Shown in pieces: positions 4,505 through 61,224 of a DNA stretch of 64,000 nt. Origin of the DNA: Omphalotus guepiniiformis (lineage: Eukaryota; Basidiomycota; Agaricomycetes; Agaricales; Omphalotaceae); the NCBI GenBank assembly GCA_028554645.1, contig JAQOOI010000076.1, positions 62,001 to 126,000 on the forward strand, given 5' to 3'. The translations under genes were made by a program, and so were the position numbers. Every line of letters starts with the position of its first letter. Position 1 is the first letter of the stretch. Under the pieces are notes generated by a model. It was given only the letters and a program-made list of their open reading frames with translations, had not been told where the DNA came from and searched no databases.

Positions 4505-4543
4505 CTTCATTCAACACCATCTATAAGTTTTATAACTTAGAGT

Positions 4544-6454
4544 TTGCTTGTCAAAATTAGCAGCTCACAGAGAAACACACGTCCTAGAAAGACTAAGAAT
4601 TCTGAGAGAGCTGGAACAGAAGAATTGTCACTGAACCAGTCATCCAGAAGGAAAAGTTCCAAAGGAAAAGAGAAAGAAGTCATACCTGAACCAGATTCAA
4701 GTTCCCTTTCGTCTCTTTCGTCCCTAAGTACGATTCCTGAACGGAATACACCTCCAGATTTATCTGAACTCTCAGCTAGATACAAGAAAAATAAGAGGAA
4801 CTTTGTTAACAGTCCTCAATATTTTGCCTTGACACATAAAAGAATCCCTGTTAAAATAATAAGGAACCCGAGAAACAATATGTCTACTCATGACAATGCT
4901 ACTGGGAATGAAGCTCCCCAACAACAAGGACCTACCCAAGGACCTGTTGAGATGGAAGAGATCTTCATTTTTGGAAATGCAACAGGAATGCAGATTCCTG
5001 TTCCTGCAGCTAAAGAGTTGCAAAATGAGAAACTACCTAAAGTCTCTAAGCAGGCCCCCATCTTCGATAAGAAACATCCATCTGAATTGGTTGCATGGTT
5101 GGCAGAGCTGGAAGGCATCTTTGTGTCAACCGGAACTAAAACAGATGCGGCTAAAGTAATGTTGGCTCTCAGATACATGGAGTTCCATACCCGTGAAGAG
5201 TTTCAACGGCTTCAAGCTGTTAAAGATTTGGATTGGGATGCTTTCAAAGAGGCATTAATGAAAAATTTCCCTGAATCTGCAGATAGAGGACTGGGATCTA
5301 GACAAAGATTGTATGCTATCATTGATGCATATAAGCTCATAGTGCTTGGTGCTATTCAGAAACTGATGGCATTTAAAAGAGAGTATGAGATTGAGTATGA
5401 GAAACTATCTTCTGGTACTACACCTGTAGTATCAAACTCAGAAGCTGTAGCTGGTTTCTTGAGTGCACTAGATGAACCCTTCAGAAGGAAACTTCTGGAC
5501 CGCTTAGAAAACAAAGTGATCAATGGCCACTTACAAGTTCAGAGAGAGGATGACCCTGTTACTCTGAAAGATGTAATGTCTGAGGCTGAAAAACTCTGTT
5601 CTGTAAAAAGAGCAGGGGGATACAACTTTGGTTTATTCTTGAATGGTCCAAATCTGGCAGAAGGATACTCTAGGATACTCCCAACAACTGAGCAGAGTGC
5701 TACAAGGAAGTTATATGATCCTTACCAAGTAGCATCTACTGTGAAGTCAGAACCAGATCAGTGGGCAATGAAATTGTCTGCAACAGTGGATAGTCACCAG
5801 AACCAGTTTAACCAGATTAGACAAGCCCAGGAAACGAATCTGGCAGCTCTTGCAAAGCTATCTGAGACAGTTGCTAACTTGGCAAAAATGACCCAAGCAA
5901 CTTCTAGCTCAGTTAGGATGAACATGAATGCTCCAAATTCCCAATCGGGACCTGGAATGAACTCTAATGGACACAATAGTGTACAAAGATCATCCCAGAT
6001 GTCATCTGTGAATAACAATACTCATGCTGACTCCAATTGCTATATGTGTGATGAGCCTGGACATAGATCTATGGACTGTCCACATCAACTTAGATTTATC
6101 AGGTTGGGGTGGATGATCAAAAATAGTGCTGGTAAATGGGCATTGAAAGATGGAGTATATTGGCCAAGAGCTGATCCGTCTGATACTCGGTCTAAGAAAG
6201 AGAAGATTGAGGAAATTGCCAAAAGACATGGATGGAAACAACCTTCCTCTCATGTTGACCAGAACTTGTATGCTTTTGAAGATGAGGATTCTGCTATAGC
6301 AGGTCCCTCTCAAAGTAGTTCATTAGATGCTATCAACAGCCTTGTTGCTCAATTCAGTCAAGTTTGCAATACTTTGCAGAATCGGGCACCAGCAGCTAAA
6401 TCTGAAACTAAGCAGATTTTGAAACGAGAAAACAACTCTGAGTCGAAAAACTAG
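4544..6454 (+). CDS. Gag, element I
   Basis: The frame is open from 4541 (TAG at 4538-4540) to TAG at 6452-6454. The listed start is a TTG; the first AUG is at 4880 (residue 113, MSTHDNATGNE), which aligns with the first AUG of element III Gag. The 112 codons before it are still similar between the two elements (ISSSQRNTRPRKT here, ISDSSRRGKPRTT there), so they look translated without an AUG. The middle holds the capsid-like region beginning LPKVSKQAPIFDKKHPSELV. A CCHC zinc knuckle (CYMCDEPGHRSMDC) starts near residue 499 and should bind RNA. Gag packages the genomic RNA in the particle. The stop lies in TCG AAA AAC TAG, the proposed slip site into the protease frame. Identity is secure, the N-terminus is not. 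Confidence 0.88.
   Translation: MLVKISSSQRNTRPRKTKNSERAGTEELSLNQSSRRKSSKGKEKEVIPEPDSSSLSSLSSLSTIPERNTPPDLSELSARYKKNKRNFVNSPQYFALTHKRIPVKIIRNPRNNMSTHDNATGNEAPQQQGPTQGPVEMEEIFIFGNATGMQIPVPAAKELQNEKLPKVSKQAPIFDKKHPSELVAWLAELEGIFVSTGTKTDAAKVMLALRYMEFHTREEFQRLQAVKDLDWDAFKEALMKNFPESADRGLGSRQRLYAIIDAYKLIVLGAIQKLMAFKREYEIEYEKLSSGTTPVVSNSEAVAGFLSALDEPFRRKLLDRLENKVINGHLQVQREDDPVTLKDVMSEAEKLCSVKRAGGYNFGLFLNGPNLAEGYSRILPTTEQSATRKLYDPYQVASTVKSEPDQWAMKLSATVDSHQNQFNQIRQAQETNLAALAKLSETVANLAKMTQATSSSVRMNMNAPNSQSGPGMNSNGHNSVQRSSQMSSVNNNTHADSNCYMCDEPGHRSMDCPHQLRFIRLGWMIKNSAGKWALKDGVYWPRADPSDTRSKKEKIEEIAKRHGWKQPSSHVDQNLYAFEDEDSAIAGPSQSSSLDAINSLVAQFSQVCNTLQNRAPAAKSETKQILKRENNSESKN
6445..6451 (+). promoter_or_regulatory. 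putative -1 frameshift site, gag to protease
   Basis: Heptamer G AAA AAC, directly before the gag stop TAG. A -1 slip puts the ribosome in the protease frame, which is open from 6442. Element III has the same TCG AAA AAC followed by TAA at 61225-61236. The A-site codon AAC re-pairs perfectly; the P-site changes AAA to GAA, so the heptamer is not fully canonical. Confidence 0.6.
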
Positions 6455-6462
6455 AGTTTCCA

Positions 6463-7860
6463 ATGAAGGAGATTGGTGAAGAAGCTGTATATACTCAGAA
6501 TCCTTCTCACAAAACAGGTCAATCTCCTGAGGAAAGTAAACTTGTAAAGAAAAAGAGAGTTGAAGTCTTACTACCTACACTAAGACCATCTGAAAGGGAG
6601 AAATACAGACCCCCTGCTATGAGAAAAGAGCCCGTTCGTTTTGAACTACCCGTTGATTCTGACACTGAGGAGATTGAATCTCCCTCTGAAAATAACAACG
6701 ATGTTGCACGGAGAGTATCTAACCGTCCGTTTGATCATGTAAAGGCAATAGATAGGCCACCTATACCAAAGGGAATGCCTGTAGGAAGCCAGAACAAGGC
6801 AAATGAGACTGAAGGAGCTCAATCTGGAACTAAAGATGGAATGAGTAATGATACAAGGAATGCTATTGTATACACAAAGCCGCCGCGTAAATCTGAGCCC
6901 GATTTCAAGCTTAGAAACTCACTATTCAAACCGGGTCTAGCAGAAGAAATTGCAGACAAAATCTTTAGATCTGAGATAGATATAAGTAGTGGGGACCTCA
7001 TTGCTATATCTCCGGCACTTCAGAAGATTATGCAGAGAAAATTGAAGAACAACAGGGTGTATAAGCGTCCTGTAAAGGCTTTTGTTCATGAAGTAAGGGA
7101 TGAAGATGATCCTGATGGTATTCTACCAGAAGAAGATGTCAATCTGGTACAGGCAAATTATATGGTCTTTATTGAAGATATGGCCTATGAAAGGGAAGAT
7201 GTGTTTATTGTCCTAGATGAAGACACAGATGACCTTAAGAAAGGCTCAGTGGTACACAAGGATGTTGTGGACCAGTATCAGAAAGATGTACCTCCAGATG
7301 AGAGGAACAAGATCATTATAGTAGCCAGCCAGACTGACAGTCTAAAGGCAATCTACCCAAAGATTAATCACTCTGATCAACAAGTTGAGACAGTAGTTGA
7401 TAGTGGTTCTCAAATCGTGTCCATGGATACAAGAGTAGCTATTGGACTTGGTTTAAGATGGGACCCAGAGACTGTGATCCATATGCAAAGTGCAAATGGT
7501 CAATTACAGGCTACTAGGGGACTAGCAAGAAATGTACCATTTACCTTTGGAGAAATAACTATCTATATGCAGATTCACATAATAGATAAAGTGCCTTATG
7601 ATGTTCTTTTGGGAAGACCATTTGATGTGTTAACAAGCAGTGTAGTCAGAAACTTTGAAACTGGAGAACAAGAGATCACCATTACAGATCCAAACAGTGG
7701 AATGAAGTGTACAATGGGAACATATGACAGAGGTAGAGGAATTAAGGTTAAACCTATTCCTGGTGAACCAAAGCTTGTCCCTGAAACACAGAAATCTGAG
7801 AGTGTCCCTGTGAAAAATGAGGGAGACTCTCAAAATTTTCATCGGACCTCAATGAACTGA
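6463..7860 (+). CDS. retropepsin-type aspartic protease ORF, element I
   Basis: 465 codons from the AUG at 6463; the frame is already open from 6442 and overlaps the gag end. The long N-terminal half is charged and low in complexity. The protease core is in the C-terminal half: VVDSGSQIVSMD with catalytic Asp at about 313, then ATRGLARNVPFTFGEI and the LLGRPFDVL segment near 385, which corresponds to the second conserved block of retropepsins (hydrophobic-hydrophobic-G-R). It should cut the Gag-Pol precursors. Carrying the protease in its own frame between gag and pol is unusual for Ty3/gypsy and recalls the gag-pro-pol layout of betaretroviruses. The stop at 7858-7860 overlaps the pol frame by 40 bases. 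Confidence 0.88.
   Translation: MKEIGEEAVYTQNPSHKTGQSPEESKLVKKKRVEVLLPTLRPSEREKYRPPAMRKEPVRFELPVDSDTEEIESPSENNNDVARRVSNRPFDHVKAIDRPPIPKGMPVGSQNKANETEGAQSGTKDGMSNDTRNAIVYTKPPRKSEPDFKLRNSLFKPGLAEEIADKIFRSEIDISSGDLIAISPALQKIMQRKLKNNRVYKRPVKAFVHEVRDEDDPDGILPEEDVNLVQANYMVFIEDMAYEREDVFIVLDEDTDDLKKGSVVHKDVVDQYQKDVPPDERNKIIIVASQTDSLKAIYPKINHSDQQVETVVDSGSQIVSMDTRVAIGLGLRWDPETVIHMQSANGQLQATRGLARNVPFTFGEITIYMQIHIIDKVPYDVLLGRPFDVLTSSVVRNFETGEQEITITDPNSGMKCTMGTYDRGRGIKVKPIPGEPKLVPETQKSESVPVKNEGDSQNFHRTSMN
7833..7839 (+). promoter_or_regulatory. putative -1 frameshift site, protease to pol
   Basis: Heptamer A AAT TTT in the protease frame fits the X XXY YYZ slippery rule exactly. It lies inside the 40-base overlap of the two frames (7821-7860). 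Element III has the same heptamer, in frame, at 59882-59888. After the slip the pol proteins align (DQGEVAV here, HQGEVAV there), upstream of any AUG. Confidence 0.72.
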
Positions 7861-7895
7861 TAAGAGATCAGGGAGAGGTAGCTGTTTGTATTGAA

Positions 7896-10800
7896 ATGGA
7901 TGAAGATGGCAATGCCACAATTGCTGGATATAAGCTGCCAGACAATGAATTGTTTTCAGAACCTGAAAAGGCTGAGGCATTTGTGTTTGCAGCTGAATCC
8001 ATCATAAGAGAAAACGATATAGCGGCTGCAGATTCGGTTAGATCGTATTTAAATCGGTCTGTAGACTCAGAAAAGAAACAAGTGTTCTGTACCTGGCGAG
8101 AAAATTTAAATTTGAATTCAAAAGAGCACTTAGATACTCAGAATTCAGACTTAGATACTTGCACGGTACTTAATCACACTTCGGAACCCGCATCTGGAAC
8201 TGAAAAGAGGATGAATAAGGGTAAAACGGTCAAAAGAGAACCGAAACCAGTCCAATCTTCAAGACCCAGATGGAGTAGAGATAAGAATGGCAACAAAATG
8301 GCCAGATTGGTGACTGTTTTGGCGTCTAGAAAGTACAAACCAGTTGCTATTAAGGTCAAACCTGTTAAAGCTACCTTACCTGCGGAGTTCCGGATTGAAA
8401 GAAAAATAATTGGAGATCCGTTAAAAGATATGCCTGAGTTACCTACTCATCCTCCAGATTTCACTCCTGGTGAGAGGTACTCTCAAGAAAGAAAAGAAAT
8501 TGTAGACAAGAATCATAATGAAGGTTTCTTATGGCCTGAAGAAATGAAACTTGTACACCATCTTATGAAAGTCCAAGAAAAAGCATTTGCATGGGAAGCA
8601 TCTGAAGGAGGAACCTTTAATACAGAGTTCTTTCCTCCAGTAAAGTTTCCAGTGTTACCACACACTCCTTGGGTAGAAAGGAATATTCCTATACCTCCAG
8701 GGATCTATGATCAAGTGTGTAAAATGATTAAGGACAAAATAGATGCTGGTGTATATGAGCCGTCCAGTTCATCCTATAGATCCAGATGGTTCTGTGTCTT
8801 AAAGAAAGATGGGAAAAGCTTAAGATTGGTCCATAGTTTAGAACCACTCAATAAAGTGACTATTCAACATTCAGGAATTCCTCCTGCAACTGCAGATATA
8901 GCTAGAAGCTTCTCTGGAAGAGCATGTTTGGGTTTACTGGATATCTTTGTTGGGTATGATGAGAGGCTGGTTGATGAAAGTTCAAGAGATCTTACAACCT
9001 TCCAAACACCTTTTGGCCCACATAGATTAGTGAAGTTACCTATGGGTTGGACAAACTCTGTCCCTATCTATCATGATGATGTTACATATATCTTCAGAGA
9101 TGAAATTCCACATGTAACTAAACCTTACATTGATGATGTACCAGTAAAAGGGCCTGTCAGCAGATATGAAACTGCAGATGGAGGTTATGAAACTATCCCT
9201 GAAAATTCTGGCATCAGAAGATTTGTGTGGGAGCATCTGCAGAATATGAACAGAATTGTGCAAAGAATGAAGCATGCTGGTGGTACCTTTGCAGGTACTA
9301 AAGCTTTTATCTGTGTAGCTGAAGGAGATGTTGTTGGACATCATGTCAGTTATGAAGGAGAAAAGCCAGTTGAAAGGTTAGCTGAAGTTGTTCTGACTTG
9401 TGATGCATCAAAATGGTCTGAGAAGAAAGATATCCGGTCATTTTTGGGCACTGCTGGTCAGATGAGGATGTTCATAAAGGATTATGCCAAGAAAGCAAAA
9501 CCTTTGACAATCTTAACTGGAGATGTGCCTTTTCAAATGGGTCCTGCAGAACTGGAAGCTGTAGAAATGATTAAAGATGGGATTAGGAATGCTCCAGCAC
9601 TCCGTCCTATTGACTATGATTTAAGTACTGGAATCACCCTTTCAGTAGATACTTCCTGGATGGCAGTAGGTTTCCAACTATATCAGAGAGACCCTGCAGA
9701 TTCAAAGAAAAAGTTCTACAATTGGATGGGTTCTATTACCTTAAATGAGAGAGAAGCAAGGTTTTCTCAACCCAAGAGAGAACTATATGGCTTGATGTTG
9801 GCCTTACAACAAACATACTACCAGACATATGGATGTAGGGATCTTACTGTGGAAACAGATGCAAGCTATATTAAAGGAATGCTTGACAAACCCAGTAGTG
9901 GTCCCAATGCAACTATAAACAGATGGATTGAAGAAATAAGGAAGTTCCACTTCACCTTGGTACACATCAAGGGCACTGAACATAAGGGACCAGATGGACT
10001 ATCTAGACCACCTAGAGGAACCATACCAACTGAAAGAGCGGCATCTAGAGATCCGGATTCATTTGTTGATGAAGATGATGGTCTGCCGGTGAAATTCAGA
10101 ATGGGAGATGGTGAATCTGAGGTACCCTTTGATTTTGAAGCCTTTAAAGATGAAATAGATACTCGAGGTGGTTACTTGCAGGAAGTTGCAAAGTCAATAG
10201 ACGACTTTGAGGACGATTTGCAAGAAGCTCTTGAAGAAGAACGTCACTTGAATTCCATTAGAGAGCTGTTAGCAACTCAACATCCAGTATCTAACTCGAT
10301 GTTGCAGTTTGCACAGACCTTGGTTATACCTGAAGGAGGTACTGAATGGAGACATGAACACCCATATAGAGAGGATCACAGATCTGCATCTACAAAGGAA
10401 CTGGATGAACAACTAGACCTAATCAAAGATTGGTACCTGCAGGGCAATCAGCCTCTAGCTCACCTAGGTGAGACTGCTATGAAAAAGTTCATTTCCAGGG
10501 CTGTAAAGTTCTTTGTAGACAGAGATGGTAGACTCTATAGAAGGAATGATGATACAGGAGGCCAGCATAGACTGGTTATGCCTAAAGAGAAAAGGATGTA
10601 CATGATGCATGCTGCTCATGACCATCTGGGACATAAAGGAATGTTTGCAACAAAAGCTCTCATAGAGAAGCGTTTTTGGTGGCCAGATTTGAATGGAGAT
10701 GTCAATTGGTTTGTCAAATCCTGCCAAATCTGCCAGAACCGAAAATTAGAATTGTTGAAGATTCCTCCTACTCTTACACACACTCCCTCCCTGTTTCAGA

Positions 10801-11939
10801 AGATTCATGTAGATGTGTTCAAAGTATCACCTCCAAGTAATGGTTGCAAGGATGTTGTACATGGCAGATGTGCACTCTCATCCTGGTCTGAAGGAAGAGC
10901 CTTAAGATCTGACAATGCTAGATCATTGGGGGAATGGTTCTTTGATGATATTATATGCAGATGGGGATGTCCGGATGAAGTAGTAACTGATAATGCACCC
11001 CAGATGCGAGCTATGCTTAAATGGCTAGAAGATAAATATGGGATTAAAGGAATTACTATATCTCCTTACAATTCCCAAGCAAATGGCAAGATTGAGAGAG
11101 CCCACTTTGACATTAGAACTGCCTTGGCAAAAGCTACAGGTGGAGATCTAAAGAGATGGTGGTGGTTCCTCAAACATGTCTTCTGGGCAGATAGAATTAC
11201 AGCTAGAAAAGGACTTGGTTGTTCACCATACTTCCTTGTTACTGGAGCTGAACCTATCCTACCCTTGGATATTGTTGAATCTACATGGTTAGTAAAACTT
11301 CCAGATAGAATCTTGACATATGAGGAACTTATTGGCTACAGAGCTCAAGCTCTAGCTAAGCATAGAACCCATGTGCAGGAGATGATATCTAGAATTGATA
11401 CAACCAAGAAAGAGACTCTTAGACAATATGAAGAAGAATACAGAAATGTTATCAGAGACTTTGATTTCAAACCTGGTACACTTATACAAGTCAGAAATAC
11501 ACAAGTTGAGAAGAACTTGGACAGAAAAATGTATCCTAGATACCTGGGACCCATGATTGTAATAAGGAGAACCAAAGGGGGATCCTACATTGTGGCCCAG
11601 ATGGATGGTACAGTACTCAGAGAAAAGGTTGCTGCCTTCAGAGTACTACCCCATGTAGCTAGATATGAACCAATTGAACTGCCTGAGAACATTCATGAAC
11701 TTATAGACCTAACTAGTGAACAACTAGAAGAGATGGTCAATGATAACTTTGAGTTAGACCCTGAACTTGAGAGAGATTACATCTTTGACAGTATTCCTCA
11801 ACTGAGAATTCCTGCTGAAGATGAAGATCTTGATGAGTCCAGTGATGAAGAACTACAATCTGCAAACAATGCAGATGAAGAAGAACCAGATTGGGATGCT
11901 CCAGTCCAGACCAGGTCTCAATCTTCACAAAATAAATGA
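7896..11939 (+). CDS. reverse transcriptase-RNase H-integrase (Pol), element I
   Basis: 1347 codons from the AUG at 7896. The frame is open from 7821 and conserved upstream of the AUG, so translation by frameshift from the protease is favoured over initiation here. In order: a linker; RT with catalytic YIDD at about 411-414; RNase H with Asp near 585 (SVDTSWMAVGF) and ETDASYI; an integrase zinc domain HDHLGHKG...CQICQ from about 908; an integrase core with D973, D1032 and E1067 (VTDNAP, NGKIERAHF); and a C-terminal domain with a GPMIVIRRTKGG segment like the GPY/F module. RT before integrase marks Ty3/gypsy. The frame is intact, unlike the pol genes of elements II and III. The last 50 residues are acidic. 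Confidence 0.95.
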   Translation: MDEDGNATIAGYKLPDNELFSEPEKAEAFVFAAESIIRENDIAAADSVRSYLNRSVDSEKKQVFCTWRENLNLNSKEHLDTQNSDLDTCTVLNHTSEPASGTEKRMNKGKTVKREPKPVQSSRPRWSRDKNGNKMARLVTVLASRKYKPVAIKVKPVKATLPAEFRIERKIIGDPLKDMPELPTHPPDFTPGERYSQERKEIVDKNHNEGFLWPEEMKLVHHLMKVQEKAFAWEASEGGTFNTEFFPPVKFPVLPHTPWVERNIPIPPGIYDQVCKMIKDKIDAGVYEPSSSSYRSRWFCVLKKDGKSLRLVHSLEPLNKVTIQHSGIPPATADIARSFSGRACLGLLDIFVGYDERLVDESSRDLTTFQTPFGPHRLVKLPMGWTNSVPIYHDDVTYIFRDEIPHVTKPYIDDVPVKGPVSRYETADGGYETIPENSGIRRFVWEHLQNMNRIVQRMKHAGGTFAGTKAFICVAEGDVVGHHVSYEGEKPVERLAEVVLTCDASKWSEKKDIRSFLGTAGQMRMFIKDYAKKAKPLTILTGDVPFQMGPAELEAVEMIKDGIRNAPALRPIDYDLSTGITLSVDTSWMAVGFQLYQRDPADSKKKFYNWMGSITLNEREARFSQPKRELYGLMLALQQTYYQTYGCRDLTVETDASYIKGMLDKPSSGPNATINRWIEEIRKFHFTLVHIKGTEHKGPDGLSRPPRGTIPTERAASRDPDSFVDEDDGLPVKFRMGDGESEVPFDFEAFKDEIDTRGGYLQEVAKSIDDFEDDLQEALEEERHLNSIRELLATQHPVSNSMLQFAQTLVIPEGGTEWRHEHPYREDHRSASTKELDEQLDLIKDWYLQGNQPLAHLGETAMKKFISRAVKFFVDRDGRLYRRNDDTGGQHRLVMPKEKRMYMMHAAHDHLGHKGMFATKALIEKRFWWPDLNGDVNWFVKSCQICQNRKLELLKIPPTLTHTPSLFQKIHVDVFKVSPPSNGCKDVVHGRCALSSWSEGRALRSDNARSLGEWFFDDIICRWGCPDEVVTDNAPQMRAMLKWLEDKYGIKGITISPYNSQANGKIERAHFDIRTALAKATGGDLKRWWWFLKHVFWADRITARKGLGCSPYFLVTGAEPILPLDIVESTWLVKLPDRILTYEELIGYRAQALAKHRTHVQEMISRIDTTKKETLRQYEEEYRNVIRDFDFKPGTLIQVRNTQVEKNLDRKMYPRYLGPMIVIRRTKGGSYIVAQMDGTVLREKVAAFRVLPHVARYEPIELPENIHELIDLTSEQLEEMVNDNFELDPELERDYIFDSIPQLRIPAEDEDLDESSDEELQSANNADEEEPDWDAPVQTRSQSSQNK

Positions 11940-12141: not shown

Positions 12142-13535
12142 TCAGAGGATGTCTGCAGATGGAAATGCATGGAAAGGAGCTGGATCATCAGCAGTACCTG
12201 GACCAGACTCCAAGGGACTCTGGTTGGCCCTGTAAGCCTTCTCCTTCTGTCTTCGGAGCAATTCCAGACGGGAAAACTCCTTGTAGGCGAATCTGTACTG
12301 AGAATGATGATACTGAATGGCATGTTGATGAACACTGAGTTCTGTCTTCAAGAAGTTGGAAATTGATTGAAGAACCTCAGGAGAGAAGTGGTCCAAGTCC
12401 ATGAAAGGGAACAGAGCAGTGATACGAGTCACAATCTCTTCTCCACTCTCCCGGAGTTTGCGCTCATCTGCAGGATAATTGAGTTAGATACTCGAAAAAG
12501 CCGCAGATTGGGTGACTACTCACGGTCTGTCTCCTCTCTAAGGTTGACGATTGGGTTCTCAATCCGAGGCTTCTTCATGACAATCACCTTGTGAGGCTCA
12601 GGAATAGGTTCATTCTACATGAACATTTATAGTCAGTACATAAAACTGCATGAATATCTCCAGATGGAACTAAAAACTTACATCTTTGGGTCCAACTGAG
12701 GTAGCCTGCAAAGTTACCATGGTGCATCAGTCTAGAGAAACGAACAAACAGTTCTGGACATAAATTGGCTCACCCTTGGAGAAGTGATTACTACTCTTTC
12801 CTTGGAAGACTTATGAACTGTGGTAGTAGTGGAAGAACCTTTGGTCTTGTCCTTGCTAGAGTCCTTGTTATCCTTATTGGGAGCATGAATCGACGCAGAG
12901 AGCCCAAGAGAAGGTCCATCTGCCATCTAAGAAAAGAAAGACCATGTTGAGATTTGAGTTAGATACTCAGGAGTTTGATACTTACAGTAACGTCTCCGTC
13001 ACCAGTAATGACCTCAATCTCTTCATCGTCATCATCGTCATCCTCAATGAGTTCAGGAGTTTTAGCTGGCTACACACCGATAGGCAGTTAGATACTCGAA
13101 ATGAGAGGGATGGTCAATAAAAACGTACTTTGCGCTTCTTAGATCCGCTGAGAGTCTCTCTGCGCTTTGCCAAGTCGTCCCGGAAAGCTTTAATGGCGGA
13201 GAAAGTGTCAGGTTCACCTACAGATGGGAACTTTTTGACTGCATCTGCGACCAGATTGACACCTTTGTCGAACAAAGTGAACGCTTCCTCGGACTTAGCA
13301 ACTGCATATGCAGGCAGAGACTTCTTCTGTAATAAGAAATCAAGTTAGATACTGGACCTGGAATCAAAGATTGAACATTTACAAGATGACTAGCAAGGGC
13401 TGTAATAAGCATCCCAAGCAGTTCAGTATCCGCATCTTTGGCCTCCATGGCTCCAGTAGCTCGAGAAAGATATCGCTGCGTTGTGGCAACCCACTCAGGA
13501 CGCTCAGGCCAAGTCTTGGGACCTTTAGGGGCCAT
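12142..13535 (-). CDS. antisense gene A of element I (unknown function, 342 aa, 7 exons)
   Basis: Exons on the minus strand: 13535-13383, 13326-13129, 13069-12986, 12926-12774, 12705-12682, 12614-12524 and 12467-12142. All junctions are GT...AG and the phases add up to 343 codons with the stop. Homologous genes with the same plan lie at 39602-40919 and 54299-55623. Shared features: exon 1 of about 50 codons with a Trp near residue 10; exon 2 ending in KRK, followed by an acidic run (EDDDDDDEE); a conserved LGLSASIHAP; and a C-terminal helical region (FSPEVLQSISNFLKTE). The basic patch suggests nuclear entry. I recognise no known domain. The gene faces pol tail to tail and has a TATA box about 100 bases upstream. 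Four of its six introns carry the element's GTTAGATACT word. Confidence 0.82.
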
Positions 13536-13630
13536 AACTGTAAAATATAGAGATAAAGAAATGATAAAAGTGGAAGGGATGTAGAACCAAGTAATAGATG
13601 GTGCTGAGTCGTTCTGAATCTGCGCTGCAC

Positions 13631-13638
13631 CTTTTATA
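13631..13638 (-). promoter_or_regulatory. TATA box of gene A, element I
   Basis: TATAAAAG on the minus strand, about 95 bases before the gene A start at 13535. Elements II (39522) and III (54188) have TATA boxes in the equivalent place, 80-110 bases upstream of gene A and 90-100 bases from the central hairpin module. Confidence 0.6.
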
Positions 13639-13729
13639 TCTGGTCTACCCCGTCTAAATCTGCACGTTGGTCATTACTCCTATGCTGTTCAAACAGGCAC
13701 CATGAGGCCTAGCCAGCGTAGCAGATTGA

Positions 13730-13769
13730 TCAACGGGGACGTTGAAGTTACTTTTACTTGGGGGAGAGA
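13730..13769 (+). promoter_or_regulatory. central hairpin plus polypurine tract, element I
   Basis: Hairpin TCAACG-GGGA-CGTTGA (13730-13745), followed by ACTTGGGGGAGAGA (13756-13769). It is a second copy of the module found at the 3' LTR border (17172-17205) and occurs at the same place in elements II and III. In element sense it may act as a central polypurine tract (second plus-strand primer). In the other direction it lies upstream of gene A's TATA box and could be a promoter element. The rest of 13770-14374 shows nothing else of note except one GAGTTAGATACTC word at 14006. Confidence 0.65.
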
Positions 13770-14374
13770 GCACACAAAGTTGACAAGGCCAAAATTTTGA
13801 ATTTTTGAAATTTCAAATATCTCAAATCTGGAGATCTAGACAGCTTTGACCGCAGAGGACTTAGCCGAATAGCATTGCCGAGTAACCGAGAGCTCTCAAC
13901 CTTGACAGAAAGGACTTATTAAATTCAATGTATCCTCAAAAAGAAACGATACTTATTGAAAATTGTGGGCTTAAGTCATTTAAAGAATTGTTTCCCTCTA
14001 GAATCGAGTTAGATACTCAATTTGAAGGAGACTCTCAATATGATTTCTTATGTTTCACACCAGATTCATGCCAAGAAAAATGAAATATGTATTTTTGAGC
14101 ATAGAAGCTCAGGACTATAATAAGAGATACTTCGACCTATACTACTATAAAGTAAGTACAGGGAGTATCTACAGAAAAAGCGATGTATAAAATTTTTATA
14201 TATTTGGGCAACCTGGTGTGTTGAACACCAAGGTCACCCGCGACGAAATGCAAACGGATACGGCAGGTCCCAGCCAAGCGAAGAGAACGGCAGATCTGTG
14301 AGATTGGGACTGAGAGATGGAGAAAGTAAAGGGAAAAGGGGGTACGAACTATGTGCGCACCCGAGCCTTGAAAG

Positions 14375-16900
14375 TCACTCTGAGAGGGGATCGTCCCTCC
14401 CAGCTAGTGGACTGCTTTCTGGCACTAAGACCCTGCCCGTCGTCTCCTCCTCCAGCTCGTCCTCCTTGTCCTCATCCTCTTCGACCGTGACTTGCGAGGC
14501 ACCAACCGCCTGAGGCGATTCGTCGATGACTGTAGCAACGGGAGTGGAAGGAACATGGGATGGACCAGCTTGCTGCTCGACCTCTGGATCCACCACGACG
14601 AAACGACCAGATTCGTTCCTAGCGATATAGCTTGCCCGAGACACCAGGTTGATGTCCCATCCAAGCGCGGTAGCCAGTAGTTTGAGCTGTTCGTCCGAAT
14701 AGTCGAATGTCGGGTCGCCAGTCTGAACCTGATGTAAAACGAGACGAGGATCGCGACACGAAGCCTTGATATGATCTTGACGCTGCAAGATCGTCCGGTG
14801 TACCCGTTCCATCGCTCGCATCTGTGCGGAGACGCTGTTCTGCATGTCCTCGTAGGTGTCGATGAGAATCTGCAACTGCTCAGCTTCCTGAGAGACAACT
14901 AAGAAACGAAGAACCTTTAATAAAAGATGTCTAAAGAAATGAAAGGAATACTTACCTGCACTGCCGCTGCAAGCCAACGTGTATGAAAGGCATCGCAACT
15001 GATCGCTGCCTTCCAAACCGTACGACCAGCTACAGGTGTGGTTGTCCTTTGCGCAGGTAGCGCAGCGCCACTCGAATGTCTTGCTGTTAAGTTGGGGACG
15101 GCATTCCCGCCCTTCTGTGTGTGTACCACCTACGCACGAAGCACAGATGGAGTCGCCAAAGAACTGAATAATGATAAAAGGGAATATTAGTGAACATCTA
15201 TCTCGAGTCAGAAAGATACTCACCCTGTCGAATGTGCGGTTGACTGAAACGAGCTGTTGCAAAGTAACAGGACGGCCATAAGGCCATCCAAAGACAACAC
15301 GGCCTGTAAAAGAACTGTTAAACAAACGCTAGAAAAATGAAAGTGAAGGATACTTACCAGGTACCTGCTCAAAGTCCTCCTTGGCACGATTCTGCGGCGT
15401 ACGGCCATCTGAGCGCTAAGGAAGACATTGTCAGTAATAAGAGCTGAAATAAAAGAAATGATGAGACTTACGTGGAGATTTGGGGCCTCATGACGGGTGC
15501 CCGGGGCTAGAGAAACAGAAGATGTTGCGAAATCGGCGCGAGAAGCCCACAAAGGAGCCTCAAAGTCGACGTTGAGATTGACGGGGGCCTTGGAACCCTC
15601 AGTCTTGACCAATTTCTCCTCTTCCTTCTTATCCTCTTCCTCGTCGCTGGAGGCTGGTACAGTGACTGGAGTCGCTTTCGAGCGAGTCTTTCGAGACGCT
15701 GGTTCATCGGCAGGCTCTTCTACCCGCATCTTCCGAATCTTTGGTCGTGGCTTGACCACCTGTTTACCCTTGCCCTGTGTAAGAAAACATGAGAAAAGAA
15801 TAAATAAATCTATAAAGAAAAACATACCTTTGAAGCTGCAGCTGCAGGCTTCTTACCTTCAGAAACGCGAGACTTCTTGACCGGAGGCTCAGAGCTCTCG
15901 GACTCGAAGCCAGTGTCATCGTCGTCGTCGTCGGTCAGCTCAGTAGATTCGGCAGTGGCTTCGACGTCGGAAATCTTGCGTTCCATCTGAGAATGATAAG
16001 ACTAAGAAATGACAATTTTGAACAAAAGAAAAGACTTACCGAACGACCCGGTAAGGACATTACACCAGTCTTGGCCTTTGCCTTTGGCTGAGGTTTTGGT
16101 TTTGAAACCGGAGCTGGCGTCTTCGAGGATCCAGCGCGAGCGGCCTTAGCAGAAGAAGCAAGAGTGGCAAGAGGCGGGAGTAAGATCTCATCGTCGTCGT
16201 TGTCCTCCTCGAGCTGCGGAGTTTGCTTAAGCTTAGGAAATGGAGGTAGTGGTTCCCATAAATTGCGAAGCTGTAAAAAGTTAGCAAAAAGAAATGACAC
16301 GGATCTGAAAGATACTTACTGTATATTTGAGACAGAAAGAATCGAGCTTAGCACGATTTAGGCCCCAAGGCGGCACAATAAATGAAGTTGGTTTTGCTTG
16401 GTGAAGCCATAGCGCGAGGTTGCATACGGAAAGAAAAGAACCTGTGAAATAGTCAGGGAGATGTGTATGTGCTCGCTGGCAGCGATTGAAAGTCAAAGCA
16501 ACGCGAGTCTGTAAAGATGAGGTTAGCTATAACAAAGATGAAAAGAAATTGGTGCCTACCAAGGCAAGATTCAAGTCGTCAAAGGCGGAGGTAATGGTTT
16601 TCAACCTGAGACCCTTGCCGAACTCCTTAAACGATTGGTCGCGTAGACGTCGGTCCAAGTCACCTAGTCTTGAAACGATGGCGGAAAGAGATTTATAGTC
16701 TTCTTCATTCATGTCTGCGAGCTGTGAGGGAGAAAAGGAAAGAAAGAGGCCGTCAATTGAGAACGGTTCTCGAATATATATGTGACACACTGTGAAAAAC
16801 AGCGCGTGAGAGAAGGGAATTAAAAAGGACTTACCGGTACCTCGGAAGGCTCCCTACTGAGAGTGATAGAGGAAGCCAATTGCCTTGAAAAGTCATCCAT
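14375..16900 (-). CDS. antisense gene B of element I: Cys6 zinc-cluster-like protein (659 aa, 10 exons)
   Basis: Exons on the minus strand: 16900-16835, 16721-16560, 16508-16320, 16270-16040, 15986-15828, 15774-15472, 15415-15358, 15303-15224, 15163-14956 and 14898-14375. All are GT...AG and sum to 660 codons with the stop. The N-terminus is folded-looking and is followed by a long basic/acidic linker (KPKPQPKAKAK, then DDDDDD, then RKTRSK). A cysteine cluster at about 423-460 has spacing CX2CX10CX12CX2CX6C, close to the fungal Zn2Cys6 form CX2CX6CX5-12CX2CX6-8C. A C-terminal ATALGWD motif is shared with the other gene Bs. A DNA-binding regulator is the natural reading, but that is inference. 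No stops were found, so this copy looks functional. Confidence 0.82.
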
Positions 16901-17171: not shown

Positions 17172-17205
17172 GATCGGGGACGATCTTATTTTACTTTGGG
17201 GGAGA
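17172..17205 (+). promoter_or_regulatory. terminal hairpin and 3' polypurine tract, element I
   Basis: Hairpin GATCG-GGGA-CGATC (17172-17185), then TACTTTGGGGGAGA ending at 17205, directly before the LTR start TGTTGCGTC. The position defines it as the primer for plus-strand cDNA synthesis. The stem differs from those of elements II and III by paired changes, which supports a real RNA hairpin. Confidence 0.8.
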
Positions 17206-19051
17206 TGTTGCGTCAAAAAGCCTTTCAGTGCTGAAATCCATCAGATTGAAGTAAATATGGAATGTTCAAGCATTGGAAACTGAACATAAAGGACTAGAGT
17301 CACCCCAGACTGCTAGTTAAGACATGAAACATACTTGTACTCACAATGCCTAAGTGTAGTGATTGCTACAGTACTGAATCTGGTACTAAGCAACTGTGAC
17401 CAATGGGTTATACAAAGAGATACTAGTTATGCCTCTCCAGATGTGTTGGAATTCCAATGTTCCATACCAGATTGAGTTGGTCAGACCCACCCTCTAATAA
17501 CTAGAGACTCTACCAAGTGTTGTTGACTGTAATCCAAGGGGTTGATGGATTTTCACTTCAATTGAACAACTATCTAAGTCCTTTGGACTGATCAAAAGTT
17601 CCAGCTGGTCTTGCTAACTAAGTTGGCACTATAAGATTGAATGCTGAGAATATGGGCAATCTTGAAGATTGTATTACCAGAGAAATATTGTACATTGAGT
17701 ACTATGTGGATATAATGTCACTGAGATGAAATGCCAATCTGTGTAATAATGGAAGTAGATTCAAAAGTTACATCTGCACAAATGAGTTAGATACTCAATA
17801 CTCATGCTGGAAGGAGTTAGATACTGAAAATGAGTATCTCTCTGGATCTGAGTATCTCTCTGAAATTCAGTAACCCTCTGAACTTGATGAAAGACAAAGG
17901 CACTCTAATTGGAGGTCTTAGACGAAACTATGGGATAGAATACTGTCCTAGGAGAAGCTGAGAGCTATCCTAAACAAGAAATATAACCTGAGTACAAATC
18001 TGACCAAAAAGAGATGTATAGGGGTAAAACTTGAAATAAACAGTTACTGTACCTTACTGTGGCTGATAGAAACGATGAAGCATGGTCTAGATAAGCTCTA
18101 GAGCTTCTACACAACTCCTAATGCTGCCCTAGTAGAGGAGAATGTGCCAATTTTGGAGAAACTTATAGGGGACCAGATTTGCAATGCACTAAGGAGAATG
18201 TCACCTGTCAGGATACTGGTTGCTATTTACAGGATCTGGACCTTTATTTAGATACCCTGGGTACGCCCTAACACACCTAGAACGCGGACAAAGCGATATA
18301 TTTCTGTTTTTATACCAATCTATACCCAAAGTTCCTACATTTTGACTATCTAACTGGAAAATTACCTAGAAAACTACCTAAAAAGAAGCCAATCTCTGCT
18401 CAATTGATACTTACTTACTTTTGACTCATTTACTGTTCAGATTACTCTTTTAATTTCGAGATATATGTTTGATTTTATGATTTAGTATATATAGCTTACA
18501 GAGTATCTATTTAGATTTTCTTAAGCAAGTACTGCCCAAAGCTACAAGCCAAAGCAGGAAAACCTTCTTAGACGAAATATAGCCTGGCTCTTTAGAGTTC
18601 AGTTCGAGAAATATCCAGTTGTGAAAACTTCTGTAAAGTCCCTTGTGGCAGATAAATTGAAAGAGATACTGAATCTTTGCTGAAACTGCTGTTCTGTCTG
18701 TGCTGAATCTGCCTGCTGAAACTGTCTGTGCTGCATCTGAAACTGTTCCCTGCATTGTCTGACCATTGGATCGAGTTTAAACATCGAGATTGATTGTCCT
18801 GAATCCCTCCTGAACCCTGAAAACCACCCTTACCTTCTGTCTGAATCTTGTGTTTTGAGATACCCTCTGCCATTTTTCACCCAGATTGAGATAAAGACAT
18901 CTGTAACCCTGCAGATTCAAAGTTCAATTGTTGCGTCTAACTGTGCGGAATCTCTGACAACGCCAGTCACACCTCACCCTACATCATTTTGATTTGAGTT
19001 GGATTGTGCTCATTTGAGTATCTCTCTCGTTCATTTCATAGTCACTACACC
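17206..19051 (+). repeat. 3' LTR of element I (about 1.85 kb)
   Basis: Begins TGTTGCGTC right after the purine tract and ends around 19050-19051 at ...CATAGTCACTA. The end is fixed independently: a 180-base copy of this LTR's last part, inverted inside another LTR at 35288, starts at exactly the same base. The LTR holds several GAGTTAGATACTC words (17784, 17814) and GAGTATCTCTCT words (17833, 17850, 19015). It also holds a glutamine-codon-like CAG-rich stretch at 18660-18750, and near its end a block starting GTGCGGAATCT (18943) that is also present in family III LTRs. A degenerate inverted relative lies at about 31340-33135. No convincing gene lies inside. Confidence 0.8.
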
Positions 19052-36420: not shown

Positions 36421-36456
36421 TCTCCCCCAAACTAAAATCTTGACCGTCCCCGGTCA
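36421..36456 (-). promoter_or_regulatory. terminal hairpin and polypurine tract, element II
   Basis: Minus strand: stem TGACCG/CGGTCA with loop GGGA (36441-36456), then TTTTAGTTTGGGGGAGA ending at 36421 beside the LTR. Confidence 0.78.
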
Positions 36457-36986: not shown

Positions 36987-38907
36987 ATGGCTCCCAAGAA
37001 AGACGGCTCAGGTAACAAGAAGAAATGCGACTCTGGGCGAACGACTTCCGCAGGGACGTCTACTATAGCTCCTCGTAAGAAAGCCCCCCCCATCTTTTCA
37101 CCGGTTTCTCTTCCTCGCGTGCAGCACATTGCGCTCCAAGAGGCTATGGTTGCGATCCAGCGCCATGTCTCAGAGGTTTATATTCGCCTCTTCGAAAAAG
37201 ACGACAATCCTAGCTTCCGAGTTGCTCATCTAATCACGCCCTTGGATAACGCTTATACCGCCTGGGTAAGATTCATTATGTTTTATTCAAATCATTTCCT
37301 TACTAAGGTCTTTATTACTTTCTAGCACACATTCTATGAAGACTGGACTTCTGATGATGATTTTCCCTACTATGCAAGATGTTTTTGGTGGTCAATTTCT
37401 CGTCTAGCTTGGCGTCTACAAGATACCGGCCTTTCTGACTTCGAAACTCTCGAACCGATGGTAATTCCCAAGGCAATGCTTCGTGAGCTGAAAGCGCTCA
37501 AGTTCAAGGTTCGTTTTTTCTCATATCATTCTTTTTGTATCGTTACTTACAACTCTCTTTCAGCCTTTTCCTTTATCTCGTCAACTCCCTCCCGTTGAAT
37601 CCTATCGTTTTCAAAGCGAGAACTCCTTTGACTTCTCCTCTCTTCCGGAATTCAATGTCTCGGCACTTCCTGAACTTCCGTCCAAAGCCTCTCCAAAAAA
37701 ACTCAAAGAGTCGCCTCCCGTTGAAGAATCTTCTGACGACGATGACGATTTAGACGACAAAGAAGAGGAAGAGGACGAGTTGGAGTCTCCGCCAAAGAAA
37801 AAGGTGAAGCGTCTTCCTTCCCCAGCACTTCGGTCGCAGATTCAAACTCGGTCGACGACTTCGATTCCTACATCAACTCGTTCTGGTGCTTCACGCAGTT
37901 GAGGTCGTCCCAAAAAGGTCAAACCCGAGGTAGGTCTCTTTATCCAATCCTTTCATTACATTATGTTTACTAACTAATCCCATTTCTAGGAAACGGTTGA
38001 GGTTAGCGCTGGCGAAGACGACGAGGTAGTCAAAACTGTTACTGCCAACCCCTACGAAATTACATACACTACCAACGCAGTAAGTTCCATATTATATCTT
38101 TATTCTTTTTGTTTCTTAACTGTTTTCTTTAGCCAACCGGCAGCAAGAAATCCTTTATCAGAGATTCACGCCTCGCCACTTCCGCAGCTACGATCCCCTT
38201 CAATTTCGTTGATCCTACCGGCCTACGACACAAGTTCAAGGACCTCGTCACCGTCAATCGGTCTCTCCAAGGTTACAGCTTGAACCCCATCTGCGCTGGA
38301 TGCCTAGCCGGCAATCTCAGTCAGCCGTGTGTATGGCACGGAGAGGACAACAAATGTAGCGTCTGCGAGAAATGGAAACGACCTTGTTCCTTTCAATATT
38401 TGCTCCACGGTATCACGAAGGTGCGCGACCTTGCTTTCCAGGAAGGACGTCAACACCCTGCTGGTACGTAGTCCATTTTTAATCTTTTTCATTCTTTCTA
38501 ATTTCGTCTTATTAGCGATCAACACACACGTTTCGAATTTACTACAACTTCACGCTGAGTTCGACAACCTTGTTCGACAATCAAATCAAACTCGCGAGTC
38601 CGCTAAACATTTGAGTTCATTGATTCAAACCGAACAACAGCGTCTTCGCAAATCGTGTGTAGATGCTCGCAGCGTTCTTCGTTCTCTCGAGCCAGATGCG
38701 GAATTCTTAGCGAATAAAGGCCAGATGGAATTGTTAGCTGCGGCTCTTGGGTGGCAAGTCGACGACTTTCGGCTTCGTAGCGCAATCAGCACCAACGACC
38801 AAGGCGAACCGATAGCCGTAGACCCTGCGTTTTTAGACAAGGCTAGAGAAACTGCAAATCAAAGTGCAGGAGTTGGGGAATCGCAGGAGGTAAGTCCAGA
38901 AGCTTAG
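36987..38907 (+). pseudogene. antisense gene B of element II (one in-frame stop)
   Basis: Exons 36987-37265, 37326-37508, 37564-37929, 37990-38079, 38133-38463 and 38516-38907 join in phase (547 codons with the stop). A TGA at 37900-37902 interrupts exon 3 at about residue 267, just before GRPKKVK, an AT-hook-like basic motif; an arginine CGA there would be the simplest ancestor. Before it lies an acidic run (DDDDDLDDKEEEEDE) and PKKKVK, which looks like a nuclear localisation signal. The Cys cluster is at about 360-391, CX2CX8CX8CX2CX6C. The C-terminal helical region carries LLAAALGWQ. The rest is intact, so the loss is recent, or the stop could be a sequencing or allelic difference. Confidence 0.75.
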
Positions 38908-39396
38908 GCACTGGACTTACACTTTCTATTCATTCTATTCACCCCAGCTCCTTCTTTTGAACGTGTTTATCTCTGCTTTTCTTGACGGTCTTATTTCGTT
39001 GTAGGTCGCCACTTGTCGAAACGAACATTTTATACGAACATTATCTTTACCATACCGCTGTTTGTACCTAAGTTTAAGTTCTACCTCTTGCTTGTAGACA
39101 CTTAGGATACTAAAATATCATTGTCATTGTGCTCTCTTTTGCTTATTATGAGTGAATTCAAACCTTAAGATTCTAAGAAATTGAAGTTGCAGCTGACTTT
39201 CTGAAGTCCAGCTGGAATCCAAAATCAAAGATTGATGCTCAGCGCTTAAATTCCATATTAAGAAATGACCACAACATTCAATATTACATTCTTTTTACTT
39301 CGTTTTTCCTTCTATTCTTTTATGTTTCTTTTAATTTGAGGGACGATTATACACCGGATAATAATTATATTCATAATTTTTCCGCAACTTGTCACC

Positions 39397-39434
39397 CTCT
39401 CCCCCAAACCAAAAATTTCAGCGCCCCCGCTGAA
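39397..39434 (-). promoter_or_regulatory. central hairpin plus polypurine tract, element II
   Basis: Minus strand: stem TTCAGCG/CGCTGAA with loop GGGG (39417-39434), then TTTTTGGTTTGGGGGAGAG. It lies between genes B and A as in elements I and III, about 90 bases before gene A's TATA box. The 450 bases before it (38908-39396) hold no gene. Confidence 0.65.
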
Positions 39435-44000: not shown

Positions 44001-44961
44001 TCTAGAATCATCATCTATCAACCTTTCATCATATCCAACAAAGATGTCCAGTGTTCCTAGACATGCTCTTCCTGCAAAGTTTCTAGCAACATCTGCAGTA
44101 GCTGGTGGAATTCCTGAATGTTGTATAGTAACTTTATTCAATGGTTCCAGACTATGCACCAGTCTCAAACTTTTTCCATCTTTCTTTAAAACACAAAACC
44201 ATTTTGATCTGTAAGAAGAACTTGAAGGTTCATAAACTCCAGAATCAATTTTTGCCTTTATAATTTTACACACATCATCAAATATACCAGGTGGTATTGG
44301 AATGTTTCTTTCAACCCAAGGTACATGTGGTAAGACTGGAAATTTCACAGGTGGAAAGAAATCTGTTCTAAAGTTTCCTCCTTCTGCAGGTTCCCAAGCA
44401 AAAGCTTTTTCCTGTTGTTTCATCAAATGATGAACTAACTTCATTTCTTCTGGCCATAAAAAGCCCTCATCATGATTTTTGTCTATGATATTCTTTCTTT
44501 CTTCATTGTATCTTTCCCCCGGAGTGAACTCGGGTGGGTTTGGAGATAATTCCGGCATTTCTGCTAACGGATCACCAAAAATATTCCTTTCTACACGAAA
44601 CTCAGCCGGTAAAGTAGCTTTAACTGGTCTAACTTTATCCTTTACAGATCTGTACTTTCCATACACATCTACAAACTCTTTATTATTTTTCTCTTTCCCT
44701 ATATTACAAGAATTTTCTTCTTGAAACATAGTACCCTTCTTTTCTTTCAACTCTTCTCTCCAACTACAGAACACTTGCTTGTCTTTTCCCCTACTCTTTA
44801 TAGTAGTAGAGTTCATATAAGCATCTAGCACTTCTGCAGCTTCTTTATCTTTTCCCACATACTCTTTAGCAGCAAATACAAAAGTTTCTGCCAATTCTTC
44901 TTTCTTAAAAGTTCCATCTTCATCAGGTAGTTTATACCCATCCACAAACAATTCACCTGAT
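41079..44961 (-). pseudogene. Pol (RT-RNase H-integrase) of element II, one stop codon, N-terminus lost
   Basis: One frame on the minus strand from about 44957 (GELFVDGYKLPDEDG) to 41079, interrupted only by TGA at 41844-41846, where elements I and III have TGG (Trp in LKRWYWFLKH). RT carries YVDDVPV, RNase H has AVDTSWMAVGY and ETDASYI, and integrase has HDNLGHKG, CQACQ, ITDNAP and NGKIERAHF. The stop falls after the integrase active site. The 5' end lacks the frameshift overlap: after DQG the sequence changes and an in-frame TGA lies at 44960-44962. The TTG at 44951 should not be read as a real start. Confidence 0.88.
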
Positions 44962-61216: not shown

Positions 61217-61224
61217 CGAAAGTA

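What the first reader, a model, noticed from the sequence alone, without database searches (positions are those of the whole stretch)
12142..16900. Gypsy families that carry two multi-intron genes in antisense, conserved in three diverged elements
Seen: in elements I, II and III alike, pol is followed by gene A and then gene B on the opposite strand (12142-16900; 36987-40919; 51618-55623), with matching exon plans and 5-9 introns each. Known: sense introns are lost when the genomic RNA is copied, while antisense introns survive. Inferred: these are stable cargo genes of a distinct gypsy lineage, kept through many transposition cycles, not captured once. Antisense extra ORFs are known in some plant LTR elements, but I know of no fungal pair like this.
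Basis: partly seen in the sequence, partly recalled or inferred. Interest (0 to 1): 0.95.

Follow-up and report, generated by a model that had tools for sequence, protein, structure and literature searches.

The report
Fungal retroelements with two backward genes
A group of large jumping genes in a fungus carries two extra, intron-split genes written backwards behind its copying enzyme, conserved by selection and probably encoding proteins that act in the nucleus for the element, with a second purine-rich copying signal and hairpin between them.

Summary
Elements I, II and III each carry, between pol and the 3' LTR, two antisense genes with 5-9 predicted introns and matching exon plans. In the same genome 144 of 150 scored integrase loci have an A-type gene antisense 0.6-0.8 kb downstream, in five families. 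The A searches showed no A gene outside element families, though 10 of 127 A loci lack a listed pol. Pooled pN/pS is 0.08 (A) and 0.11 (B) in 17 family-I copies. Gene B encodes a six-cysteine zinc-cluster-like module, below the Pfam cut-off.

Beyond the finding: (1) each gene borders a polypurine tract (PPT) with a short hairpin whose arms covary. One is the true PPT at the 3' LTR; the other lies between A and B, as a central PPT would. Three chromodomain elements with other or no antisense genes also have a PPT hairpin, so it probably belongs to the PPT. (2) Gene B is replaced en bloc: two elements 93-100% alike in pol and A have B bodies 48-69% alike.

Antisense extra genes are known (plant Retand, fungal Boty); this is a new variant. 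Function is inferred and expression untested.

The parts
12142..13535 (-). gene A, element I (7 exons: 13535-13383, 13326-13129, 13069-12986, 12926-12774, 12705-12682, 12614-12524, 12467-12142)
   Evidence: model; pooled pN/pS 0.08 over 136 pairs, 14 of 17 copies open, splice sites 12/12 in 15 of 17
14375..16900 (-). gene B, element I (10 exons; zinc-cluster exon 15163-14956, last exon 14898-14375)
   Evidence: model; pooled pN/pS 0.11, 11 of 17 copies open, splice sites 18/18 in 16 of 17
4541..11939 (+). gag, pro, pol of element I in three overlapping frames (4541-6454, 6442-7860, 7821-11939)
   Evidence: ORFs; protease, RNase H and integrase H2C2 domains, and a weak CCHC match
13729..13746 (.). 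stretch holding hairpin A of element I (6-bp stem, GGGA loop in pol sense)
13760..13770 (+). internal polypurine tract of element I
   Evidence: read; kept in the copies aligned, most with one more C on the gene strand
17172..17185 (.). hairpin B of element I (5-bp stem, GGGA loop in pol sense)
17198..17205 (+). 3' PPT of element I, abutting the LTR
17206..19049 (+). 3' LTR of element I (5' LTR at -2781..-937, outside the window)
36421..36428 (-). 3' PPT of element II; hairpin within 36440-36457
36987..38907 (+). gene B, element II (this copy has an in-frame stop at 37900-37902)
39395..39405 (-). internal PPT of element II; hairpin within 39417-39434
39602..40919 (+). gene A, element II (6 exons)
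41079..44960 (-). pol of element II (two adjoining ORFs)
49631..51109 (-). 3' LTR of element III (5' LTR 63214-64692)
51110..51117 (-). 3' PPT of element III; hairpin within 51128-51145
51618..53538 (+). gene B, element III (this copy has an in-frame stop at 52885-52887)
54050..54059 (-). internal PPT of element III; hairpin within 54073-54090
54299..55623 (+). gene A, element III (7 exons)
55815..63057 (-). gag, pro, pol of element III (several ORFs)

Best explanation
A and B are genes of the retroelement itself. They belong to a group of long (15-16.5 kb) Ty3/gypsy elements and travel with pol. SHOWN: position, antisense strand, conserved exon plan, purifying selection, presence in five families (I and IV are close, II, III and V more distant), a six-cysteine module in B, PPT plus covarying hairpin at the border of both genes, and en bloc divergence of gene B. 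INFERRED: each gene is transcribed from its own promoter just inside its PPT (B from the edge of the 3' LTR, A from the A-B interval), is spliced, and makes a nuclear protein acting in trans on the element. B is the likely nucleic-acid- or chromatin-binding partner (zinc cluster plus coiled coil), and its fast-replaced body sets a specificity. The internal PPT plus hairpin most likely works as a second plus-strand origin, as a lentivirus central PPT does. The pair probably arose when an element with one antisense gene and one PPT gained a second such module.
For: 117 of 127 A loci have pol downstream, 622-817 bp between matched stretches, and 117 of 117 are on the opposite strand; lineage V 27 of 27, at 612-619 bp. 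So 144 of the 150 integrase loci scored have an A-type gene. Pooled pN/pS is 0.08 (A) and 0.11 (B); within B it is lowest (0.04) in exons 8-9, which include the zinc exon. Between I and IV the ratio is 0.09 for the A last exon and 0.22 for the B last exon, at dS near saturation (1.6 and 1.4). Six Cys plus one Lys are invariant in B of five families, with one gap in V. 10 of 10 sites have a stem of 5 bp or more, against a mean of 0.64 and a maximum of 4 in 2000 shuffles. 17 cells have both sides changed, reached by 0 of 500 shuffles; one pair shows all four Watson-Crick types. Chromodomain elements with confirmed LTR borders have a GGGA-loop hairpin 2-4 nt from the PPT (L051, L054) or an AGGG-loop hairpin overlapping it (L055). 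L029 against L063: pol and A 93-100%, B body 48-69%. In 29 of 31 lineage-V pairs A is 99-100% alike, while the B last exon is either 55% (13 pairs) or 87-100%.
Against: No RNA or protein data. B reaches no Pfam cut-off: Zn_clus E 0.15 (V) and 0.78 (II) on isolated zinc exons, no Zn_clus match for I and III (best for III was a PHD variant, E 0.039), none for full V_B. The AlphaFold model of the zinc exon was poor (pLDDT 60.6). The link of V_B to B of I and II is weak by HHalign (pairwise E 6e-4 but probability 29%), and V_A is not detectably similar to A of I-III, so V rests on position and exon plan. In one search two measures are less strong: pairs with a double change reached by 21 of 500 shuffles, pair types by 58 of 500; the sites are also related by descent. 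Hairpin spacing in the comparators (2-4 nt, or overlap) differs from the A/B elements (11-14 nt). In 4 of 7 comparators (L052, L053, L056, L057) no PPT hairpin was seen, but their LTR borders were not confirmed. Short hairpins as such are not rare (3-11 per stretch of about 2.1-2.3 kb in the comparators). The internal PPT also lies upstream of a TATA-like box of gene A (by eye, about 85-135 bp), so a promoter role is not excluded.
Confidence: 0.62

Rival explanations
1. The palindrome plus CCCCC box is a promoter site (UAS) for A and B, read by the zinc-cluster protein B; the pair is an autoregulated unit, and the likeness to a PPT at A is incidental.
For: Both genes have the motif on their upstream side in all five families. 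B looks like a zinc-cluster, coiled-coil protein, and such proteins bind inverted repeats; the II and III B sites read CCG-N4-CGG, which I recall as the Leu3 type.
Against: A like hairpin lies at the PPT of chromodomain elements that have no gene between pol and PPT (L051, L054). B versions only 58% alike in protein share one identical hairpin (C74 and C19 copies). At V_A the box changed but stayed all-purine. Spacing to the PPT is 11-14 nt in the 7 sites listed; spacing to the TATA-like box is looser (by eye).
Confidence: 0.2
2. A and B are host genes captured by an ancestral element and now passengers without a role.
For: Multi-intron structure typical of host genes; a Zn2Cys6-like module is common in fungal regulators (recalled).
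Against: Purifying selection; no A gene outside element families; fixed position relative to pol.
Confidence: 0.1
3. The antisense transcripts act as RNA (double-stranded RNA, small RNA control) rather than through proteins.
For: Antisense RNA control of LTR elements is discussed as an alternative in PMC7264820 (passages).
Against: pN/pS of about 0.1 and kept splice sites show selection on the protein. Both roles can coexist.
Confidence: 0.08

Closest known systems
Boty / BcGypsy1 brtn (Botrytis cinerea, Sclerotinia)
   Same: Fungal gypsy-type element with an additional antisense gene between pol and the 3' LTR (PMC7264820 section 5; PMC8365987 passages).
   Different: One gene reported; in the passages read I saw no pair, intron plan, zinc module, internal PPT or hairpin. 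The original paper (Zhao 2011) was not read.
Retand, Grande, RIRE2 antisense aORFs of plant gypsy elements
   Different: TRP28 domain or none; the word intron was not found in the main text of either paper; no hairpin-PPT pair in the passages.
HTLV-1 HBZ
   Same: Antisense gene with a promoter in the 3' LTR, nuclear protein (PMC10186651 start of abstract in listing; PMC11963269 passage).
   Different: Retrovirus, bZIP protein (recalled), one gene.
Central PPT of lentiviruses
   Same: A second polypurine tract inside the element; the central PPT and its termination sequence are mentioned in PMC3185511 (passages).
   Different: Here it lies between antisense genes near the 3' end and has a covarying hairpin; function untested.
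Tf1/Tf2 and Tosmo mosaic elements of fission yeast
   Same: One segment strongly divergent on an otherwise near-identical backbone, ascribed to inter-element recombination (PMC10085805 passages).
   Different: There the divergent part is U3/Gag, here an antisense gene.

Membership tests
Ty3/gypsy LTR retrotransposon | LTRs, PBS, PPT, target duplication | tested here: met
   LTRs 99.8% alike; PBS TGGAGCCCACCGCGAGGGG after the 5' LTR, PPT at the 3' LTR; 4-bp duplications in 3 of 4 copies examined
Ty3/gypsy LTR retrotransposon | protease, RT, RNase H, integrase in gypsy order | tested here: met
   Pfam: aspartyl protease, RT_RNaseH, Integrase_H2C2 in that order; RT gave no RVT_1 hit and the integrase core no rve hit at E 0.1, RT was seen by motif only
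[quoted passage not shown]
   144 of 150 integrase loci; LTR borders checked in I, III and two sister copies of I only
antisense aORF between pol and 3' LTR (plant and Boty type) | antisense transcription | not testable with these tools
   no RNA data
Zn2Cys6 (Zn_clus) transcription factor | CX2CX6CX5-12CX2CX6-8C spacing (recalled) | tested here: inconclusive
   V_B CX2CX6CX8CX2CX7C fits; I-IV have a longer first gap; all six Cys plus one Lys invariant
Zn2Cys6 (Zn_clus) transcription factor | Pfam Zn_clus above its curated cut-off | tested here: not met
   12.6 (V) and 10.3 (II) bits against 21, no match for I and III; met only by the different L055 antisense ORF, 21.3 bits over profile positions 1-15 of 39
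central PPT | internal polypurine copy of the 3' PPT | tested here: met
   I-IV share the G-run plus AGAG at the internal site and GGGGGAGA at the LTR; V is all-purine
central PPT | primes a second plus strand | not testable with these tools
   needs plus-strand DNA end mapping

The most novel reading that the evidence does not exclude
The element is built of repeated modules, each an antisense gene ending in its own hairpin-PPT. Fusion of two modules gave a second plus-strand origin, and gene B is an exchangeable specificity cassette (idiomorph-like) that lets otherwise identical elements differ in what they bind or evade. It would be a two-gene accessory system with allelic types inside a retrotransposon.
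Probability: 0.3. Interest if true: 0.88.

Novelty: new variant of a known kind. Interest (0 to 1): 0.76.

Why it matters
Antisense extra genes of LTR retrotransposons have been catalogued for years with unknown function. Here the genes are intron-rich, paired, under strong purifying selection in the family tested, present in five families of one genome, and tied to a replication signal. That makes their function testable: RNA-seq, plus-strand mapping, binding assays. A hairpin linked to the PPT, kept through compensatory change, would be a new cis element for plus-strand priming. Block replacement of gene B points to selection for variety in an element-encoded protein, a possible arms race with the host or with sister elements.

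Tried and rejected
Homologues outside the genome: protein searches with B (residues 330-620) and A found none at E 0.001. That database is built from public genome and metagenome predictions and appears poor in fungi, so this says little. IMG/VR scan with pol: none. Pfam on full A and B: nothing above a cut-off. PDB sequences: nothing useful for the V_B zinc stretch (E 1.3); Leu3 at E 0.34 for the L055 ORF. A and B as paralogues: HHalign gives no support. AlphaFold of the zinc exon: poor, not used. No structure library was searched.

Considered and demoted: the hairpin as a binding site of B (see rivals). At first I read the CTCCCCCAAA box as a promoter element; its position against the LTR and the comparators changed that. 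The comparator scan was first run from the pol stop on and missed the L051 and L054 hairpins, which overlap the end of pol; a second scan with settings chosen after seeing them found them. Breakpoints of the mosaic at the two PPTs: not seen. In family I the high-divergence zone runs from about 14.0 to 16.78 kb; in V its 3' edge is graded.

Rows dropped or weak: V_B was left out because its loop has 3 bases (it pairs), and a second family-II B variant was put in. In one search the C53 copy (L041, L042) and L049 showed no hairpin in the stretch fetched, and L043 has one G-T pair. The IV_B loop is ACCT, not TCCC, in 3 of 3 copies seen (L030, L047, L048); 6 family-I copies have TCCT in the B loop and 3 have an arm change; 10 of 127 A loci have no listed pol, 10 of the 92 B loci given to it have no A within 4 kb, and 45 of 127 A loci have no listed B (the B list is truncated and used a family-I query). 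These were not resolved one by one. One search used 46 of the 53 L055-type matches and 30 of the 150 chromodomain hits.
Full report
WHAT IS THERE. Each of the three elements has pol and, on the opposite strand downstream of it, two split genes. LTRs found by self-comparison enclose them in I (-2781 to 19049, with a nested 5.3-kb insertion) and III (49631 to 64692); the LTRs of II were not worked out. Two sister copies of I and element III have 4-bp target duplications (CCGT, ACGG, CCGC); the window's element I matches at 3 of 4 bases. So the unit with both genes transposes as one. The LTR pairs are 99.8% alike in I and III and 99.9% in the two sister copies, so these insertions are recent.

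ARE THE GENES REAL. In 17 family-I copies (window plus all 16 fetched loci that hold the genes; about 40 copies exist) pooled pN/pS is 0.08 for A and 0.11 for B over 136 pairs each; pairs are not independent. Within B it is lowest (0.04) in exons 8 and 9, which include the zinc exon. A is open in 14 of 17 copies and B in 11 of 17. All 12 splice-site dinucleotides of A are kept in 15 of 17 copies, all 18 of B in 16 of 17. Families I and IV, further apart, give ratios of 0.11 (pol end), 0.09 (A last exon) and 0.22 (B last exon); dS is near saturation for A and B, and the zinc exon was too diverged at silent sites to give a ratio. Gene A of II and III is 25% and 37% identical to that of I, with matching intron phases.

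HOW WIDESPREAD. Whole-genome searches with the last exon of A from three families gave 127 merged loci with the family-I query. 117 of them have the integrase end of pol 622-817 bp downstream, all 117 on the opposite strand. Of 150 integrase loci (187 candidates, 150 scored), 117 have such an A. 27 of the other 33 form lineage V (52-54% identical in the 112-aa piece). V also has two antisense split genes in these places: 27 of 27 at 612-619 bp. B of V is weakly related by its zinc module (HHalign E 6e-4, probability 29%) and has introns of the same phases before and after the zinc exon. A of V is not detectably similar in sequence and is assigned by place and exon plan. 10 of 127 A loci have no listed pol and were not resolved. 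A decayed sixth type may lie on C33.

WHAT B LOOKS LIKE. B has six cysteines as CX2C..C..CX2C.K..C, invariant in I-V with one gap, followed by a stretch that reads like a coiled coil (by eye, no program run). It resembles a fungal Zn2Cys6 cluster but stays below the Pfam cut-off, and I and III give no Zn_clus match at all. A different antisense ORF in a chromodomain gypsy family of the same genome (L055) does reach that cut-off, barely and over part of the profile. Of 46 of its 53 genome matches, compared with 30 of the 150 listed chromodomain hits, 27 lie within 600 bp of a chromodomain and all 27 are antisense. Two more chromodomain elements (L052, L053) have antisense ORFs of 279 and 250 aa, stop to stop. 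Antisense genes behind pol thus occur in several gypsy groups here.

THE PPT AND THE HAIRPIN. Upstream of each of the six genes in the window, and nowhere else in it, lies a CG-YCCC-CG palindrome with at least 4 paired bases next to CTCCCCC. The composite pattern occurs 137 times in the genome, against 0 for the reversed control. On the pol strand the box next to B is GGGGGAGA, abutting the TG of the 3' LTR: the PPT. The box next to A is a second, internal purine tract, longer than the first in I-IV (GGGGGAGAGAG and alike) and still all-purine in V where the letters changed (GGGGAAGGG). 10 of 10 sites have a stem of at least 5 bp within 45 nt of the PPT, against 0.64 expected and at most 4 in 2000 shuffles. 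In 10 hairpins (V_B left out, a second family-II variant included) 94.3% of cells pair and 17 cells have both sides changed, reached by none of 500 shuffles; one position shows all four Watson-Crick pairs. Two other measures are weaker: pairs with a double change 21 of 500, pair types 58 of 500. The sites are related by descent, so the figures are not probabilities. DNA dyads and RNA hairpins give the same pattern. What leans to the PPT: of 7 chromodomain comparators, the 3 whose LTR borders were confirmed by the other LTR all have a hairpin at the PPT. L051 (8 bp) and L054 (6 bp) have a GGGA loop 2-4 nt away, with no room for a gene between pol and PPT; these two are related. L055 has a 13-bp stem with an AGGG loop overlapping the PPT. 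In the other 4 no PPT hairpin was seen, but their LTR borders are not known. The spacing differs from the A/B elements (11-14 nt), so common origin is not proven. I therefore read it as a PPT-linked structure and the internal copy as a second plus-strand origin. Whether it primes is untested.

GENE B IS REPLACED EN BLOC. In family I, 10 of the 11 copies tabulated differ from the window by up to 20-25% in windows through the B body, as a patchwork with some identical windows, and mostly by under 7% outside it; one window in gene A near 12.7 kb reaches 17%, and L015 is alike through most of B. In lineage V two B versions sit on one backbone. L029 and L063 are 93-100% identical in pol and A and 97-99% around the 3' PPT and LTR border, but 48-69% through B. 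The edge is sharp near the B start codon and graded (73-85%) from the B stop to the start of A, across the internal PPT. The proteins are 58% identical over 613 aligned residues with an almost unchanged zinc cluster, and introns of the same phases from the shared start on. In lineage V, 11 pairs with A at 100% have B at 55% and 10 have B at 100%. Mosaics of this sort are known for Tf1/Tf2 and ascribed to inter-element recombination (PMC10085805, passages), there in Gag and U3.

MECHANISM. Transcription from promoters inside each PPT, splicing, and nuclear action of A and B on the element are inferred; the nearest functional model is HBZ of HTLV-1. Low pN/pS with strong block divergence suggests a protein with a fixed core and a changeable body. 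The two-module origin (one antisense gene per hairpin-PPT) is a hypothesis suggested by L055, where I saw one hairpin-PPT and the Zn2Cys6 ORF, besides a smaller overlapping antisense ORF.

PRIOR ART. Antisense aORFs in plant elements and Boty brtn: PMC7264820 (section 5 and passages), PMC11963269 (passages), PMC8365987 (passages). Fungal LTR surveys PMC3248453 and PMC3411680: the word antisense was not found (passages only). PPT structure: PMC3185511, PMC11381356 and PMC10085805 (passages) gave no such hairpin. Searches for a fungal antisense pair, a zinc-cluster cargo, an internal PPT or a PPT hairpin (only the top 6-25 rows of each seen, as titles and openings of abstracts) listed none that I recognised; the library holds only open-licence papers.

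CHECK. Mended: counts and wording on comparators, weaker measures, HHalign probability, capped lists and unresolved loci.

Noticed in passing
L055:421-1290, L052:343-1179, L053:347-1096: Antisense genes are not limited to this group: chromodomain gypsy elements carry other ones. L055 has a Zn2Cys6-type ORF (290 aa); L052 and L053 end in VIDLT-type acidic motifs that look like SUMO-interacting motifs (recalled).
   Followed up: partly
C15:178464-193824, C4:30037-38875, C1:2138-5606, C13:4424-7891, C78:96-689: Relatives (36-51% where the match is long) of the L055 antisense gene lie in clusters, several near contig ends, with none of the 30 chromodomain hits compared nearby: perhaps a subtelomeric gene family from which the element gene came, or the reverse.
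   Followed up: no
window 6380-6460 and 7800-7870; 61200-61290 and 59850-59970: gag, pro and pol of element I lie in three overlapping frames stepping -1 each; the ORFs of III overlap too, and AAATTTT occurs in the pro-pol overlap of both, a possible slippery site.
   Followed up: partly
window 7821-11939: RT has the motif PYIDDVPVKG and gives no RVT_1 hit at E 0.1: an atypical gypsy RT.
   Followed up: no
window -786 to 4517 and -9436 to -4126: Two copies of another LTR element (391-bp LTRs, about 5.3 kb, 99% alike), one nested in element I; no stem-loop of this kind seen at its ends (by eye).
   Followed up: partly
target sites of I, its sister copies and III: Target duplications CCGT, ACGG, CCGC all contain CCG or its complement, which hints at a target preference; 4 copies only.
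   Followed up: no
L058:1732 and L061:1771: Behind the 5' LTR of two chromodomain elements the sequence starts TAAGATCGAAGC rather than TGG, so they may self-prime like the Tf1/sushi group.
   Followed up: no
C33:7560-12561: Degenerate A (58%) and B (44%) remnants on one strand: a possible sixth, decayed family.
   Followed up: no
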